From the NCBI RefSeq assembly GCF_001904745.1, contig NZ_MRCD01000030.1, positions 1-64,000 on the forward strand: DNA of 64,000 nt. Reading direction: 5' to 3'. Positions 30,614 through 35,863 of the stretch are shown piece by piece. The notes beneath the pieces are model-generated. The model searched no databases, was not told where the DNA came from, and was given only the letters and a program-made list of their open reading frames with translations. The stretch's first letter is position 1. Each line of letters begins with the position of its first letter. This stretch comes from Calothrix sp. HK-06 (lineage in GTDB: Bacteria > Cyanobacteriota > Cyanobacteriia > Cyanobacteriales > Nostocaceae). The position numbers and the translations under genes are program-made.

Positions 30614-30675
30614 AATGAGTAATATTTATTATAATGGTAAAAGAGAACCATATAAATACGACTTCCAAAATAGGT

Positions 30676-30954
30676 ATGAAATGTGAATTATGTGAACGCG
30701 AGATGGAAGACCTTACCCTCCATCATTTAATTCCCAGGCAATATACCAAACGTAAGAAGCTAGAAACAAGCTCAACTATTGATATTTGTTCACCTTGTCA
30801 TCGTCAGATTCATGCTCTATTTGATAACAAAGTTCTGGCAAAAGAATTAAATACGGTTGAAGCGTTGAAGAGTGAACCACGAATGCATAAATTTATAGCT
30901 TGGGTGAAAAAACAAAATCCCCAGAAACGAGTAACCGTGCATCGCCAAACATAG
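30676..30954 (+). CDS. HNH-endonuclease-domain small protein
   Basis: About 92 residues from MKCELCEREM; a start 14 codons upstream is open. The HNH pattern is complete: CELC at the front, LTLHHLIPRQYTKRK, then ICSPCHRQIHALFDN, so two CxxC pairs bind zinc and the HH...H residues form the beta-beta-alpha metal site. The family is found widely in cyanobacteria as a free-standing small protein with no assigned role. It may nick DNA or RNA. It lies between the MarR region and the sigma-fusion gene, with no operon partner. Confidence 0.82.
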   Translation: MKCELCEREMEDLTLHHLIPRQYTKRKKLETSSTIDICSPCHRQIHALFDNKVLAKELNTVEALKSEPRMHKFIAWVKKQNPQKRVTVHRQT

Positions 30955-31072: not shown

Positions 31073-31090
31073 TAACTGTATAGTCAGTCA
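31073..31090 (+). promoter_or_regulatory. TetR-operator-like sequence (relict copy)
   Basis: TAACTGTATAGTCAGTCA, followed by TAAATCACATCAGATAGTGA, resembles the promoter/operator of the hydrolase-tetR operon 3.4 kb away (TGACTGTCTATTCAGTCA, then TAAACTATATTAGTATAGTG). No gene follows it on this side; it may be a duplicated promoter left behind, or a second operator. Confidence 0.5.
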
Positions 31091-31163
31091 TAAATCACAT
31101 CAGATAGTGATGGTACCGATATGAGCTACAAACGATAAAAAACCCAAGCGTTGCTCCTTAGTT

Positions 31164-34130
31164 TTAACGATTAGCACAGTTGTGTTGGATTTTTGTAACA
31201 AATTGTAAATCTTCCATTGCGCCCTGATAATCTTTTAGAGCAGCACGAACACTACTCCGTTTGTTGTAGGCTTTCGCATCATTAGGGTTTATACGCAGTA
31301 ATGCATTTAAATCTTCAAGCGCTTGCTGGTAATTTCCCAAAGTGTAATGAACATTAGCTCTATTATAATAAGCTTCGGCAAAGGCAGGATTAATTTTCAA
31401 AGCTTGGTCATAGTCTTTAAGTGCTTTTTGATACTCACTTAAGTTTTCATAAATAAGTCCACGGTGGTAGTATATTTGAACATTTTTAGGATTAATTAGT
31501 ACTACCTGAGAATAGTCTTTGAGTGCTTCTTGATAATTCTCCAAACGATGATGTGCAAGTCCTCGCCGACTGTAAGCTTCGGTAAGTTCAGGACAAATAC
31601 ATAAAGCTTGATTGTAATTCTCAATAGCTTTATATAAATCTCCCAGTTGATCAAAGGAAATTCCTCGATATAAATAAGCTTCCGTATAGTCAGGTCTTAT
31701 ATATAACGCCTGATTGTAGTTATTAATAGCTGCCTGTATCTGTCCTTGGGTATTACGGACAATTCCACAGTACAAATAAGCTAAGGCTTCGTTAGAATTA
31801 AGAGAAATTATCTTCCTGTAATCCTCGATTGCTTTTTGACCATCTCTTAAATAGTAGTAGATATGACCTCTTTGGTAGTAAGCTTCTACATATTGAGGGT
31901 TAAGGGAAATAGCTTGAGTAAAATCTTCAATTGCCGCTTGAGCATATTTTAACTTGATCTGAGCTAGTCCTCTAAAGTAGTATAATTGGGCATTACTGGG
32001 ATTTAGCTTTAATGCTTGAGTCAAGTTTTCAATTTCTCCCAAAAAATCTCCACATTTGTGACAAGCTATTGCGATTTGAAAATAATCATTTGCATTTTTT
32101 TTCTGTTGTTTATAGATGTTATCTTGGTTTACAGTACATTCCTCTTGTTCATAACTTTTTTGTAAATTACCTAACTGGTCTCTACAAATGTATTCTTGAA
32201 GAACAATGTTGCGGTTGGGGTGGCGTAATTTGCGGATTGCTTTCGCTTCAATTTGGCGAATTCGCTCGCGGGTTTCGTTAAATATGTAAGCAATTTCCTC
32301 AAGAGTCTTCATGCGTCCATCATCAAAACCATAACGTAGTCTTATGACATCACGTTCACGATGGCTAAGAGAATTAAGTACTTTTTCTAAGTCTTCACGC
32401 AACAAATTTTTATAAAGATATTCTTCTTGGCTTGGTTCCTCCGCTTCTATAACATCTGCTAAATATAGATATTCGTTTATACCCTCCTCATTAAAGCAGC
32501 GCTCTTTTTCTATATAAATAGGAGTTTCTAGTGAAATAGGATGTTGAACTAATTGAACAACAAAACGTAACTTCTCAATGGCGATTTGCATACGTTCGGC
32601 AATTTCTGCTTCGGTAGGTTTACGACCCATCTCTTGAGAAAGCAACTTGCAAGTTTTTATAATTCTAGAAATAGTCTCGTATACGTGAATCGGCAATTTG
32701 ATAGTACGCGATTGCTCGCTAATTGCGCGGTTAATAGCTTTACTAATCCACCATGTCGCATATGTAGGAAATTTATAACCTTTTTCGCAATCAAATTTTT
32801 CAGCCGCGCGTATTAAACCTAAACTACCTTCTTGAATCAAGTCTTGAAACACCAATCCTTGATTAATATATTTTTTGGCAATTGATACTACAAGACGCAA
32901 GTTAGATACAACTAGCTTATTCTTCGCGCGTCTCAAGATATGAAGACGGTTACGAAATTGTGGCACGGATAGTTGTAAAGCTTCTGCCCATTCAATATCT
33001 TTAGGGTCGCGGTCTAGTTGCTGTGAAAGTGCTTCACGAACTCTTTCAAATTCCAGTAAATCAGCAATTTGTCGTGTCAGTTGAATTTCTTCATCAGCAC
33101 GTAACATACGAATCCGACCAATTTCTTCTAGGTACAGGCGAATTGAGTCTTCCGTATAGCATTTTTTTTGAGTTTGCTTACAATCATGTAATTTTACATC
33201 ATTATTATCATCGCTGTCTTTATTCTCTGTTGTGGTTTCTAAAATTTCATCGTTTTCCTCGCTAAAATCATTGCTTAACAACTCTTGTTTATATTCGATA
33301 GATATTTTCAAATTTTCCTGAGCATTAATACTGTTTGAGGCTAATTGATTTACTGAATTTTGATATGATTTCTTCTTTTCACTTTCTGTTAAAACCTTTG
33401 GTTTACTCTCTATAACTTTGTCTAATTCTCTATATGGCAACTCAACAGCTTTAAACACTGGACAATCTACCAACAAATCATCAGTTTCGTAAAATTCTTC
33501 TGTTTTTACTGGAATATCTTTCAAGGAAGTCGTTGATAATGTATTAATGTATGTTTGATTCGTTACACCAAAAGCAGATAACAATCGGTGCCATTGTTCT
33601 TCATCTAATTGTTTTTGTTTATTTGCAGAACCTATAGTTAATTTATTTTTTAAAATATCTAATTTAAAATGTTCTTTAATTAGTATAGCACCCGTTTGAA
33701 GTAAATTATCAAACCCTTTTAATTTCCACTGTTCTTGATGAATAAAGGGAATAGCGACTCGAAAGTTGAAAGATAATAAGTTACAAAAATCTAATCGTTC
33801 ACGTAAGTTTTTTTTTAATGCGAACATCTGGTCTTGTGCTTGAATTACTGGTCTTGTTTTCGATTCATACCAGTTTTCCATGCTCCATTCCGAACCTTTA
33901 ATACTGACAATATTATTTATATAGCATCCTTTACATTCAATTATCCATAATCCTAATTGAGGATGAACAATAAGGATATCTATTTCTTTTTCTAAATTTC
34001 CGTTCTTGTAAAATAGCTGAAAACGATGAAATGCCACGCCAGGTTCGCTGTTAAAAGTCTTTTTTAGCTTCTCCCAGACAAATTTCTCAGCTTTGTGGGC
34101 ATTATCAATATTTTGAGGATAGAATTCCAT
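31164..34130 (-). CDS. NERD nuclease-like, sigma-70 and TPR fusion protein
   Basis: 988 residues in three parts. Residues 10-120 form a NERD domain with an intact PD-(D/E)xK core: Asp51, Glu65 and Lys67 (LWIIECKG). A charged linker runs to about 325. Residues 328-650 are a complete group 2 sigma-70: region 1.2 DSIRLYLEEIGRIRML, region 2 LRLVVSIAKKYINQGL with FPTYATWWISKAINRAI, region 3, and region 4 with LRYGFDDGRMKTLEEIAYIF and RERIRQIEAKAIRKLR. Residues 683-988 carry about nine TPR units (34-residue spacing, AEAYYNRANVHYTLGNYQQA type). One uninterrupted frame covers it, so it is not an assembly artefact of neighbours. It may load polymerase on promoters in response to a TPR-bound partner; the nuclease part may be regulatory or protective. 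The fusion is unfamiliar to me. Confidence 0.9.
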   Translation of the reverse strand: MEFYPQNIDNAHKAEKFVWEKLKKTFNSEPGVAFHRFQLFYKNGNLEKEIDILIVHPQLGLWIIECKGCYINNIVSIKGSEWSMENWYESKTRPVIQAQDQMFALKKNLRERLDFCNLLSFNFRVAIPFIHQEQWKLKGFDNLLQTGAILIKEHFKLDILKNKLTIGSANKQKQLDEEQWHRLLSAFGVTNQTYINTLSTTSLKDIPVKTEEFYETDDLLVDCPVFKAVELPYRELDKVIESKPKVLTESEKKKSYQNSVNQLASNSINAQENLKISIEYKQELLSNDFSEENDEILETTTENKDSDDNNDVKLHDCKQTQKKCYTEDSIRLYLEEIGRIRMLRADEEIQLTRQIADLLEFERVREALSQQLDRDPKDIEWAEALQLSVPQFRNRLHILRRAKNKLVVSNLRLVVSIAKKYINQGLVFQDLIQEGSLGLIRAAEKFDCEKGYKFPTYATWWISKAINRAISEQSRTIKLPIHVYETISRIIKTCKLLSQEMGRKPTEAEIAERMQIAIEKLRFVVQLVQHPISLETPIYIEKERCFNEEGINEYLYLADVIEAEEPSQEEYLYKNLLREDLEKVLNSLSHRERDVIRLRYGFDDGRMKTLEEIAYIFNETRERIRQIEAKAIRKLRHPNRNIVLQEYICRDQLGNLQKSYEQEECTVNQDNIYKQQKKNANDYFQIAIACHKCGDFLGEIENLTQALKLNPSNAQLYYFRGLAQIKLKYAQAAIEDFTQAISLNPQYVEAYYQRGHIYYYLRDGQKAIEDYRKIISLNSNEALAYLYCGIVRNTQGQIQAAINNYNQALYIRPDYTEAYLYRGISFDQLGDLYKAIENYNQALCICPELTEAYSRRGLAHHRLENYQEALKDYSQVVLINPKNVQIYYHRGLIYENLSEYQKALKDYDQALKINPAFAEAYYNRANVHYTLGNYQQALEDLNALLRINPNDAKAYNKRSSVRAALKDYQGAMEDLQFVTKIQHNCANR

Positions 34131-34568: not shown

Positions 34569-35333
34569 ATGGATTTACATTACGAAATTCAAGGAAATGG
34601 CGAGCCAATCGTCTTAATGCACAGTGGTATGGCGGACTTGCGTGACTGGGAGTTTATTGTTCCGCAGTTGGTTCAGACTTATAAATGTATAGCTTTCGAT
34701 GGACGAGGCGCCGGAAAGTCCCCTTCACCTGTTGAAATTCCCAATTACGTCGAAGATTTAAAGAATCTGCTTGATTTTCTTAGTATCGAGCAAACGATTC
34801 TTGTTGGACATTCTTTCGGTGGAGGAATTGCTACCGATTTTGCTATGGCATATCCGCAACGAGTATCAAAACTAGTGTTGGTTGCTCCTGGCTTGACTGG
34901 ATACCAGTTTTCACAGGAAATGGTGCAGCATTTTCAGGAGATTCAAGCAGTGGCGCCAGATGTTGAGAAAATGGTGCAACTTAGCCTGAAATTACCTAGT
35001 TACAAAGTAGTGATGGCAAGCCTGCAACGTGACCTTATGGTGTCGATGTCAACTCACAATACGCAACGCTCGCTTGAATGGCAGCATTTATGGAAGAATG
35101 TACAAATTTGGGGTGAATTACCTGCAATTCCTCAATTGAATGAGCTTGCAGTCAAAACTTTGTTTATTATTGGCGCCGAGGACACTAAGGAGTGTTTCAA
35201 TATCGCAGATTTATTCAAACAAGTTCCTGATATTCGCTTTGCCAAAATTTCAGGTGCAGACCATATGGTAACTTTGACTCATCCGATGGAAGTTTCTAGT
35301 ATTATCAAAGAGTTTCTTATTGAGTCGAAATAA
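34569..35333 (+). CDS. alpha/beta-fold hydrolase
   Basis: About 254 residues from MDLHYEIQGNGEP, chosen for the GGAGG eight bases upstream. The nucleophile elbow is GHSFGGG (Ser), the oxyanion strand has IVLMHSGMADLRDWEF, Asp is in LFIIGAEDTKE, and His in KISGADHMVTLTHP. All three catalytic positions are therefore present. It is the first gene of an operon with a TetR regulator (TAATG overlap) under a palindromic operator, so expression is probably induced by a ligand that the enzyme or its partner degrades. Confidence 0.87.
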   Translation: MDLHYEIQGNGEPIVLMHSGMADLRDWEFIVPQLVQTYKCIAFDGRGAGKSPSPVEIPNYVEDLKNLLDFLSIEQTILVGHSFGGGIATDFAMAYPQRVSKLVLVAPGLTGYQFSQEMVQHFQEIQAVAPDVEKMVQLSLKLPSYKVVMASLQRDLMVSMSTHNTQRSLEWQHLWKNVQIWGELPAIPQLNELAVKTLFIIGAEDTKECFNIADLFKQVPDIRFAKISGADHMVTLTHPMEVSSIIKEFLIESK

Positions 35334-35863
35334 TGCCCCGTACCCCAGAAGAAAATGAACGTATCCGTCGTGCGACAAAAGAGCAAATTCTCAAAGCAGC
35401 AATGGATATGTTCTGCTCTAAAGGCTATCATTCTGCGTCAATCGATGATGTAGCAAAGCAAGCGCAAATCTCCAAAGGATTACTCTATCACTATTTCAAA
35501 GGTAAAGAGGAATTACTTGCCGCATTGGTTGAGGTAAGAATCAGCGACATATTAGTTGTGATGCAAGCAGCAGAAGCAAAAAAAACTCCTGCCGAGCAAA
35601 TCCATCATATTATAGAGGGTGCTTTGGAAGATGTGCAACGGCAACTGGAGGTTTTTCGTTTTTACCTCAACCTTTTTACCCAACCCCGACTTGATCCAAT
35701 TGTGGCAAAATACAGCCAAAAATTAATGGATGAGCAAGCAAGACAGTTTGAGGTACAAACTGAGATGTGTATGTTCCATTTTTATAATATCTACTCAAGT
35801 AATTCGATATTCTTATGCTTTTACCTGCCCTCGAATTTCGACTACTGCTATCGTTTTTTATAA
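35333..35863 (+). CDS. TetR-family regulator, C-terminus replaced
   Basis: 176 residues. The TetR HTH is complete (ATKEQILKAAMDMFCSKGYH, IDDVAKQAQISKGLLYHYFK). The ligand-binding helices run normally to about residue 142 (QKLMDEQARQFEVQTEM), then the sequence turns hydrophobic and low-complexity (FHFYNIYSSNSIFLCFYLP) to the stop. The usual family length is nearer 195-200 residues. I infer a truncation or junction in the last third. Dimerisation could be impaired, so control of the operon may be constitutive or altered. Confidence 0.75.
   Translation: MPRTPEENERIRRATKEQILKAAMDMFCSKGYHSASIDDVAKQAQISKGLLYHYFKGKEELLAALVEVRISDILVVMQAAEAKKTPAEQIHHIIEGALEDVQRQLEVFRFYLNLFTQPRLDPIVAKYSQKLMDEQARQFEVQTEMCMFHFYNIYSSNSIFLCFYLPSNFDYCYRFL

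What the first reader, a model, noticed from the sequence alone, without database searches (positions are those of the whole stretch)
31164..34130. NERD nuclease-like, sigma-70 and TPR in one protein
One open frame joins a NERD domain with intact Asp51, Glu65, Lys67, a full group 2 sigma factor (regions 1.2 to 4) and nine TPR repeats. Sigma factors are rarely fused to other domains, and I know of no described NERD-sigma fusion. It could couple promoter choice to sensing of foreign or damaged nucleic acid.
Basis: partly seen in the sequence, partly recalled or inferred. Interest (0 to 1): 0.93.

Follow-up and report, generated by a model that had tools for sequence, protein, structure and literature searches.

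The report
Nuclease fused to housekeeping sigma factor
In a few filamentous cyanobacteria a spare copy of the main promoter-recognising protein has been joined to a DNA-cutting-type domain and a protein-binding repeat array; the fusion is real, conserved and rare, and may be a transcription-linked defence protein.

Summary
The frame is real: 988 aa, NERD (PF08378) + complete sigma-70 + nine TPRs. It is not an assembly artefact: 12 further listed database proteins carry NERD+sigma, two on contigs of about 7 Mb, and Asp51, Glu65, Lys67 are invariant in 13 of 13. Correction: the sigma part is a duplicated SigA, 74% identical to the genome's own SigA, not a SigB-E type. The gene is rare (6 of 217 Nostocaceae genomes), with dN/dS below 0.4 in NERD, sigma and TPR, yet often decaying; Calothrix sp. 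PCC 7103 has it deleted. A second family carries another nuclease domain (PF12705) before a SigA part with a like insert in the sigma finger (6 of 6; SigA 0 of 20). Another SigA fusion lies in a two-gene overlap with an HKD-SNF2 defence-type helicase (7 of 7 loci examined). Best reading, unproven: a SigA-derived module that docks a nuclease on RNA polymerase or promoters. Sigma factors with accessory domains are known in cyanobacteria (PMC11119718); a nuclease-sigma fusion did not turn up in my ten paper searches.

The parts
31164..34130 (-). NERD-SigA-TPR fusion gene, 988 aa
   Evidence: relatives
33798..34097 (-). NERD domain (PF08378), residues 12-111
   Evidence: Pfam 44.5 bits against cut-off 22.1; conserved block about 1-195
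33978..33980 (-). Asp51 codon, putative catalytic residue (PD-(D/E)XK-type; role recalled)
   Evidence: invariant 13 of 13
33930..33938 (-). Glu65-Cys66-Lys67 codons, putative catalytic E-x-K
   Evidence: invariant 13 of 13
33156..33545 (-). linker, residues 196-325
   Evidence: highest dN of the four parts in 9 of 10 gene pairs; a stop codon falls here in G398
33060..33149 (-). sigma region 1.2 (328-357)
32703..32915 (-). sigma region 2 (406-476); core-binding and melting residues kept
32697..32744 (-). altered -10 reader positions S463, K464, N467, K478 (E. coli R436, Q437, T440, R451)
   Evidence: changes at 436, 437 and 440 together occur only in the window's copy among the rows shown
32502..32678 (-). 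sigma region 3 (485-543)
32463..32495 (-). 11-aa insert in the sigma finger (region 3.2), residues about 546-556
   Evidence: alignment; finger stretch 25 residues here against 14 in 20 of 20 SigA rows
32220..32381 (-). sigma region 4 (584-637); -35 reader residues kept
31176..32093 (-). nine TPR repeats, residues about 680-985
   Evidence: AlphaFold2 pLDDT 84-97 per block of ten from 681 to 960
31080..33961 (.). stretch of 2,882 bases missing from the corresponding locus of Calothrix sp. PCC 7103 (L055)

Best explanation
A transcription-linked nuclease. A duplicated SigA serves as the docking and aiming part: it binds core RNA polymerase and promoter-like DNA. The NERD domain is a PD-(D/E)XK-type nuclease that would cut DNA (or nucleic acid at the initiation complex) where the complex sits, and the TPR array is the regulated partner-binding part that holds it off or switches it on. 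The likeliest use is conflict with phages or plasmids that recruit the SigA holoenzyme. Shown by sequence: the joined frame, kept putative catalytic and core-binding residues, SigA origin, constraint on all domains, a rewritten sigma finger, and a second family with another nuclease on a like sigma part. Inferred: cutting, docking, TPR control, defence role.
For: Putative NERD catalytic residues invariant 13 of 13; dN/dS over 10 gene pairs: NERD 0.12-0.39, sigma 0.05-0.16, TPR 0.19-0.34 (the sigma values are lowered by exchange with sigA, see report). Core-binding positions L384, D403, Q406, E407 (E. coli numbering) kept 13 of 13; in the 12 other NERD-sigmas, SigA-invariant cells changed: region 2.2 8 of 324, 2.3 0 of 216, but finger region 3.2 67 of 298. 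A different nuclease domain, PF12705, sits before a sigma part with a finger insert in 6 of 6 aligned members; its motif residues (RecB/Cas4-like, recalled) are kept in 7 of 7: two nucleases in the same slot argue for a nuclease role. The tree holding NERD and PDDEXK fusions together (20 rows) is 25.8 lnL better than the free quick tree (p-AU 0.85), so one scaffold is not rejected. Patchy presence and repeated loss. Another SigA fusion class overlaps by four bases an HKD-SNF2 helicase gene in 7 of 7 loci examined (PADLOC C3a139, 432 bits for one of them). NERD is listed in the defence systems Mokosh I and Nhi-like (table passage in PMC10952713).
Against: No assay. No recognised defence island around the window gene (an HNH neighbour matches PtuB only weakly, 16.5 bits); in four Nostoc-type genomes it sits at one fixed site among ordinary genes. 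Promoter-reading residues at 436/437/440 are canonical in 12 of 13, which fits an ordinary sigma just as well. P0012 has lost the NERD but keeps sigma-TPR in frame. The finger insert is absent in 5 of 13 NERD members and short in one. In the free tree 5 of 6 PDDEXK fusions lie apart from the NERD fusions. AlphaFold2 gave low confidence for NERD and most of sigma, and Foldseek found no significant match for the NERD model. NERD's activity is called unstudied (PMC9040797 passages).
Confidence: 0.4

Rival explanations
1. An ordinary alternative sigma factor with accessory regulatory domains: it forms holoenzyme and transcribes a small gene set; NERD binds nucleic acid or a ligand as a sensor and TPR binds a regulator. 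No cutting is needed.
For: Sigma regions 1.2-4 complete; core-binding, melting and -35 residues kept in the window's copy, residues at 436/437/440 canonical in 12 of 13 family members; sigma has the lowest dN of the three domains in 9 of 10 gene pairs; accessory-domain sigma factors are described in cyanobacteria (PMC11119718).
Against: The sigma finger, needed for normal initiation (recalled), is rewritten in 7 of 13 members; the window's own copy has lost three -10 reader residues; P0007, P0009 and P0013 changed R441, P0010/P0011 changed -35 readers and P0013 lacks region 4; two nuclease types occupy the N-terminus with motif residues kept.
Confidence: 0.3
2. Bait model: the SigA part is an integrated decoy for phage proteins that seize host sigma or RNA polymerase; binding releases the nuclease through the TPR array.
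For: The fusions placed on the tree lie on the SigA side, away from the genome's other sigma factors; a search with one group 2 sigma showed no long group-2-type fusion with an extra Pfam domain in its best 120; in G382 residues 409-448 of the fused sigma match the resident sigA at 97% while the sister copies G240 and G398 match each other at 98% and G382 at 86%, a sign of conversion from sigA; the cyanophage Ma-LMM01 is reported to use SigA-like promoters, and AsiA-type anti-sigma proteins occur in a subset of jumbo phages (passages of PMC5780444 and PMC7824862).
Against: No phage partner known; Ma-LMM01 itself is reported to lack AsiA; the fusion searches were seeded with SigA-like or one group 2 sequence and so are biased; the window's copy shows no conversion; region 4, the AsiA target (recalled), is gone in P0013; conversion follows from homology alone.
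Confidence: 0.13
3. A near-neutral domain-shuffling product on its way out: a SigA duplicate that picked up other domains, kept for a while, without a lasting function.
For: Of 8 copies read as DNA, 4 are intact, 1 lacks region 4 in frame, 1 has a stop in the linker, 1 is broken and 1 is a deletion remnant; rare (6 of 217); TPR array shortened in P0010, P0011, P0013 and absent in P0014.
Against: dN/dS well under 1 in every domain including NERD; D51, E65, K67 invariant 13 of 13; full architecture kept between 56-74% identical proteins P0001-P0009.
Confidence: 0.17

Closest known systems
Cyanobacterial primary sigma factor SigA (group 1; solved e.g. as PDB 8h3v chain G)
   Same: Regions 1.2-4; 74% to the genome's own SigA; best PDB sequence match is a SigA, 2.2e-147; one RpoD equivalog cut-off met.
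   Different: Fused at both ends, finger insert, changed -10 readers in the window's copy, an extra copy beside a normal SigA.
Cyanobacterial sigma-70 with accessory domains (Gevin, Latifi and Talla 2024, PMC11119718; abstract, sections 6, 7, 11 and passages seen)
   Same: Canonical r1.2-r2-r3-r4 core with accessory domains at both ends (their family number 4 within clan A, by my reading of section 7).
   Different: NERD or any nuclease domain is not named in the main text; supplement not readable here.
NERD-helicase (UvrD-type, recalled name) proteins of cyanobacteria
   Same: Near NERD domains: 43-46% identity to L053 and L054, whose 731-733 aa frames carry a Walker A motif; 43 of 52 other NERD loci with a frame found do too.
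   Different: They carry an ATPase/helicase, not sigma-TPR.
MzaA (sigma-like protein of the MZA anti-phage system; PADLOC/NCBIfam)
   Same: A sigma-70 domain inside a defence system (PMC9523054 passage); matches the sigma part, residues 392-650.
   Different: Only the sigma part matches, 278.6 bits against a cut-off of 800; the other Mza proteins were not searched for by name, and Pfam on ten neighbours showed nothing that I recognised as one.
TRADD-N type conflict proteins with exchangeable N-terminal effectors (PMC8195603, passages)
   Same: REase and ECF-sigma-like HTH domains occur as alternative modules with repeat arrays.
   Different: No TRADD-N domain was seen in the Pfam scan here; full SigA rather than an ECF HTH.

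Membership tests
NERD domain (PF08378) | profile match above the curated cut-off | tested here: met
   44.5 bits against 22.1
NERD domain (PF08378) | conserved acidic/E-x-K residues of the PD-(D/E)XK type | tested here: met
PD-(D/E)XK nuclease fold | alpha-beta-beta-beta-alpha-beta core fold | tested here: inconclusive
   predicted order of elements fits but mean pLDDT 53.6 and no significant Foldseek match
PD-(D/E)XK nuclease fold | nuclease activity | not testable with these tools
   bench assay needed
SigA / group 1 lineage | regions 1.2, 2, 3, 4 all present | tested here: met
SigA / group 1 lineage | groups with SigA rather than the genome's other sigma factors | tested here: met
   SH-aLRT 99 separating the six other own sigma rows (quick tree)
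SigA / group 1 lineage | essential, single primary sigma | tested here: not met
   a separate normal SigA exists; the gene is deleted in Calothrix sp. PCC 7103
SigA / group 1 lineage | canonical -10 and -35 reader residues | tested here: not met
   -35 readers kept, but R436S, Q437K, T440N, R451K in the window's copy
MzaA (MZA defence system) | full-length family cut-off | tested here: not met
   278.6 bits against 800, sigma part only
Anti-phage defence protein | profile or neighbourhood of a known system | tested here: not met
   PADLOC matches of the window protein lie in its sigma and TPR parts only; ten neighbours scanned with Pfam look ordinary

The most novel reading that the evidence does not exclude
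SigA has repeatedly been turned into a module of immune proteins in filamentous cyanobacteria: a nuclease- or STAND/WD40/TPR-bearing SigA copy that rides on, or acts as bait for seizure of, the host's main transcription machinery and answers phage takeover with nucleic-acid cleavage. The NERD-SigA-TPR protein would be a one-gene, sigma-guided or sigma-baited immune effector, whose sigma part can be refreshed by gene conversion from the resident sigA.
Probability: 0.17. Interest if true: 0.92.

Novelty: new variant of a known kind. Interest (0 to 1): 0.62.

Why it matters
If the fusion cuts nucleic acid while docked on RNA polymerase, it would be a way of aiming a nuclease by promoter recognition. 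If the sigma part is bait, it would be a bacterial parallel to the integrated decoys of plant immune receptors (recalled). Either reading is directly testable with one gene from cultured strains. Even as a plain alternative sigma it shows the SigA finger being rewritten in duplicates and exchange of sequence between a fused paralogue and the essential sigA.

Tried and rejected
Assembly chimera: rejected, because the same joined frame occurs in separate records. Group 2 (SigB-E type) origin: rejected by identity and tree. Known defence system by profile: no match. Conserved operon partner of the NERD fusion: none found; four Nostoc-type loci share a site, G240 and the window lie elsewhere.

Structure: the full-length AlphaFold2 model is confident for TPR and moderately for residues 351-400 only; the NERD model is weak and Foldseek gave no significant match. 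Both are counted as inconclusive.

TPR homology between NERD and PDDEXK fusions: for four of five queries the best matches are the last two repeats of NERD fusions (P0016's best is elsewhere), but repeats of TPR proteins of the same genome score about as well (for P0016 and P0020 better), so this does not show common descent. The finger insert is the better mark: 25-27 residues in 7 of 13 NERD members, 14 as in SigA in 5, 16 in P0005; 25-38 in 6 of 6 PDDEXK rows. Exchange with sigA could explain the five without it and is not proven for each.

The free quick tree scattered the fusions: NERD with P0016 among SigA of Nostocaceae and of family f18, the other five PDDEXK rows elsewhere. One search showed that it had missed a better tree with the fusions held together, so the order of origin is not settled. 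Rows left out before the tree: 9 fused proteins and 10 SigA rows of 84; P0018 was thereby left out of the residue counts too. Region borders and the roles of sigma residues are recalled; columns beside the insert may be misaligned.

One search's rows for G398 are invalid (wrong locus read) and are not used; one search reads the right one, with no dN/dS for it. A 100% match of G435 to its sigA rests on six codons and is not used. The group 2 test used one of the group 2 sigmas; P0071 and P0181 in its list have extra Pfam domains but matched the SigA-type query better. The PDDEXK search found 121 of 388 genomes with a relative, the listed frames being short (below 350 aa) except G728, which matched over residues 1-267 in a 669-aa frame that was not read further. 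Literature: ten searches gave no nuclease-sigma fusion; only open papers are held, and supplements could not be opened.
Full report
What is there. The ORF at 31164-34130 on the minus strand runs 988 codons without a stop. Pfam places NERD at 12-111, sigma regions 1.2, 2, 3 and 4 between 328 and 637, and TPRs up to about 956. The sigma part meets the RpoD equivalog model PRK07406 of NCBIfam (539 against 500 bits); other RpoD models and the SigC and SigD models are not met. AlphaFold2 on the 13-row family alignment is confident mainly for about 681-980, where first helices every 34 residues give nine TPRs. A NERD-only model has the order helix, three strands, helix, strand, with Asp51 at the start of the second strand and Glu65-x-Lys67 in the third, but at mean pLDDT 53.6; Foldseek found no significant PDB match, so the fold is not confirmed.

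It is a family, not an accident. In the protein database 13 of the 120 listed hits carry both NERD and sigma domains, the window's own included (a capped list; sequences); the named ones are Nostoc strains annotated as RpoD. In the alignment of these 13, E49, D51, E65, K67 and Q97 are invariant. Among 217 Nostocaceae genomes six have a NERD match at or below 1e-100, and all six continue into sigma, in G398 after a stop; in a 291-genome sample of the order I found the own copy, that of G240 and a broken copy in G134. Most other NERD relatives examined are NERD-ATPase/helicase proteins: of 59 loci, 43 carry a Walker A-like motif, 7 a sigma signature (six genomes), 2 neither (one is the split copy of G398), and 7 gave no frame in the script. 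The NERD was thus probably taken from a NERD-helicase; it is 43-46% identical to those of L053 and L054.

Where the sigma comes from. Over 319 residues the fused sigma is 74% identical to the genome's own SigA, whereas SigA proteins of 29 other genomes of the order are 93-98% identical to it and six other own sigma rows are 43-48%. On a 65-row quick tree the fusions lie on the SigA side, split from those six with SH-aLRT 99; the NERD fusions fall in a clade with SigA of Nostocaceae and family f18 (98). So this is a fast-evolving SigA duplicate.

What the sigma kept. Residues aligned with E. coli L384, D403, Q406, E407 (core binding, recalled) and F427, Y430, W433, W434 (melting, recalled) are kept in all 13. 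In the window's copy the positions of R436, Q437, T440 and R451 read S, K, N, K; its nearest relative P0002 (74%) has the canonical letters, so this is probably recent. Single changes at R441 or R451 occur in P0006, P0007, P0009 and P0013. -35 reader positions are intact in the window; they are changed in P0010 and P0011, and region 4 is missing from P0013. Counting SigA-invariant columns (20 SigA rows) over the 12 other NERD fusions, 8 of 324 cells changed in region 2.2, 0 of 216 in 2.3, 7 of 228 in 2.4, 29 of 319 in 4.2, but 67 of 298 in the finger region 3.2. The finger stretch is 14 residues in 20 of 20 SigA rows, 25-27 in 7 of 13 NERD fusions (the window among them), 16 in P0005, 14 in five, 27 in the NERD-less P0012 and 25-38 in 6 of 6 PDDEXK fusions aligned; the other fusions shown have no such insert. 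Core docking seems conserved while the part that enters the active site (recalled) has been rewritten in many.

A second nuclease in the same slot. P0015-P0021 have a PF12705 (PD-(D/E)XK; RecB/Cas4-type by recall) domain in front of SigA and, except P0021, TPRs behind it; five of five scanned are above the Pfam cut-off. The blocks GYWGK-x-D, (D/E)WKT and KIQC-x-AY are kept in 7 of 7. Holding all NERD and PDDEXK fusions together gave a better tree than the free quick search (25.8 lnL, p-AU 0.85), and holding the insert carriers together likewise (12.8, p-AU 0.63). One sigma-TPR part with exchanged nucleases is therefore allowed, though not shown. This family is rare too: one fused-length frame among 388 genomes of the class, plus P0020, the Coleofasciculus sp. 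FACHB-T130 protein, read in L120.

Selection, exchange and loss. Over ten pairs of genes, dN/dS is 0.12-0.39 for NERD, 0.05-0.16 for sigma and 0.19-0.34 for TPR. Between G240 and G382 dS is 0.10 in NERD and 0.08 in TPR but 0.59 in sigma, so the sigma part has a history of its own. In G382 residues 409-448 (window numbering) match the resident sigA at 97% and the fusions of G240 and G398 at 86%, while those two match each other at 98%; over residues 288-328 the fusions of G431 and G435 match their own sigA at 95-96% and those of G240 and G398 at 65-68%. I read this as gene conversion with sigA, although for the second stretch retention of an old state is possible. The window's copy shows none (66-79% to its sigA across the sigma segments). 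Losses are frequent: of eight copies read as DNA four are intact (window, G240, G382, G431), G435 lacks region 4 in frame, G398 has a stop in the linker, G134 is broken, and Calothrix sp. PCC 7103, with 94-99% identical flanks in the same order (apart from a few hundred bases upstream), has lost 2,882 bases (window 31080-33961), leaving about 56 codons. The gene is dispensable at least there.

Surroundings. The window's neighbours are a three-gene exporter (ABC_tran, FtsX, HlyD), MarR, an HNH protein, a hydrolase and TetR, none of a recognised defence system (the HNH protein matches PtuB weakly at 16.5 bits). In G382, G398, G431 and G435 the gene sits at one site between an aldo/keto reductase and a PucC-like transporter (named by eye); in G431 a methylase joined to an EcoO109I-type restriction enzyme (PF14511, 288 bits) lies just downstream.

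A wider class. A search restricted to long proteins showed further SigA-like fusions: WD40 (P0023, P0121), pentapeptide (P0140), and a 1434-2309 aa type with an AAA_22 domain. The last lies directly behind an HKD-SNF2 helicase gene with a four-base overlap in 7 of 7 loci examined (in L170 the fusion frame is shortened); the genus search had found 11 of 29 genomes with the N-terminal part, and the other four were not examined. The helicase of L121 matches PADLOC C3a139 (HKD+Snf2) at 432 bits. This ties at least one kind of SigA fusion to a defence-type partner. A query with one group 2 sigma gave no long group-2-type fusion with an extra Pfam domain in its best 120.

Mechanism. I hold most likely (0.4) that the SigA part docks the protein on RNA polymerase and promoter DNA, that NERD cuts there, and that TPR controls it, in conflict with phages or plasmids. 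Shown: anatomy, conservation, origin, selection. Inferred: every activity. The plain alternative-sigma reading (0.3) is a strong rival because promoter-reading residues are mostly kept. The bait reading (0.13) is the boldest: some phages depend on or attack the host's primary sigma (passages of PMC5780444 and PMC7824862), and conversion with sigA would keep bait and target alike. Decay without function (0.17) is held down by dN/dS.

Compared with print. Gevin et al. 2024 (PMC11119718; abstract, sections 6, 7, 11 and passages seen) count 29 accessory domains on cyanobacterial sigma factors, at either end, and name NB-ARC, WD40, AAA_35, Cas6 and TPR_MalT among them; NERD and nuclease are absent from the main text. 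NERD's function was called unstudied before SmdA (PMC9040797 passages) and NERD is listed in Mokosh I and Nhi-like defence (PMC10952713 passage). Exchangeable REase and ECF-sigma-like effectors are described in TRADD-N proteins (PMC8195603 passages). Hence: new variant of a known kind, with a real chance of something larger.

Noticed in passing
L121:4530-13486 and L165-L170: In genomes of one genus (Microcoleus by the names of related database proteins) an HKD(PLD)-SNF2 helicase gene overlaps by four bases a gene with a SigA domain and, at the end, an AAA_22 domain; 7 of 7 loci examined. The N-terminal domain is unnamed (DUF4391-like in P0131, below cut-off).
   Followed up: partly
P0023, P0121, P0140, P0149 (database proteins): SigA-like domains fused to WD40 arrays or pentapeptide repeats; the N-terminal parts of P0140, P0151 and P0167 look like one shared unnamed domain by eye.
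   Followed up: partly
   Followed up: partly
L119:7284-10220: In G398 a TAG stop in the linker splits the protein into a NERD ORF (263 aa) and a sigma-TPR ORF (712 aa) that starts a few bases later; both halves are otherwise open.
   Followed up: partly
window 35333-35863: The TetR-family ORF is 176 aa with a different tail from the 200-aa ORF of Calothrix sp. PCC 7103 (L055:6826-7428), suggesting a frameshift in the window's copy.
   Followed up: no
window 30634-30954: Small HNH protein beside the fusion gene, also present in Calothrix sp. PCC 7103; weak PADLOC match to PtuB.
   Followed up: no
P0012 (737 aa, on a 9.3 Mb contig): Keeps the first residues of the NERD family and then runs straight into sigma-TPR: a natural in-frame loss of NERD.
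   Followed up: no
P0024-P0120: Many RpoD-like proteins of about 543-650 aa with a long N-terminal extension and, as a rule, no extra Pfam domain; the few named ones are cyanobacteria.
   Followed up: no
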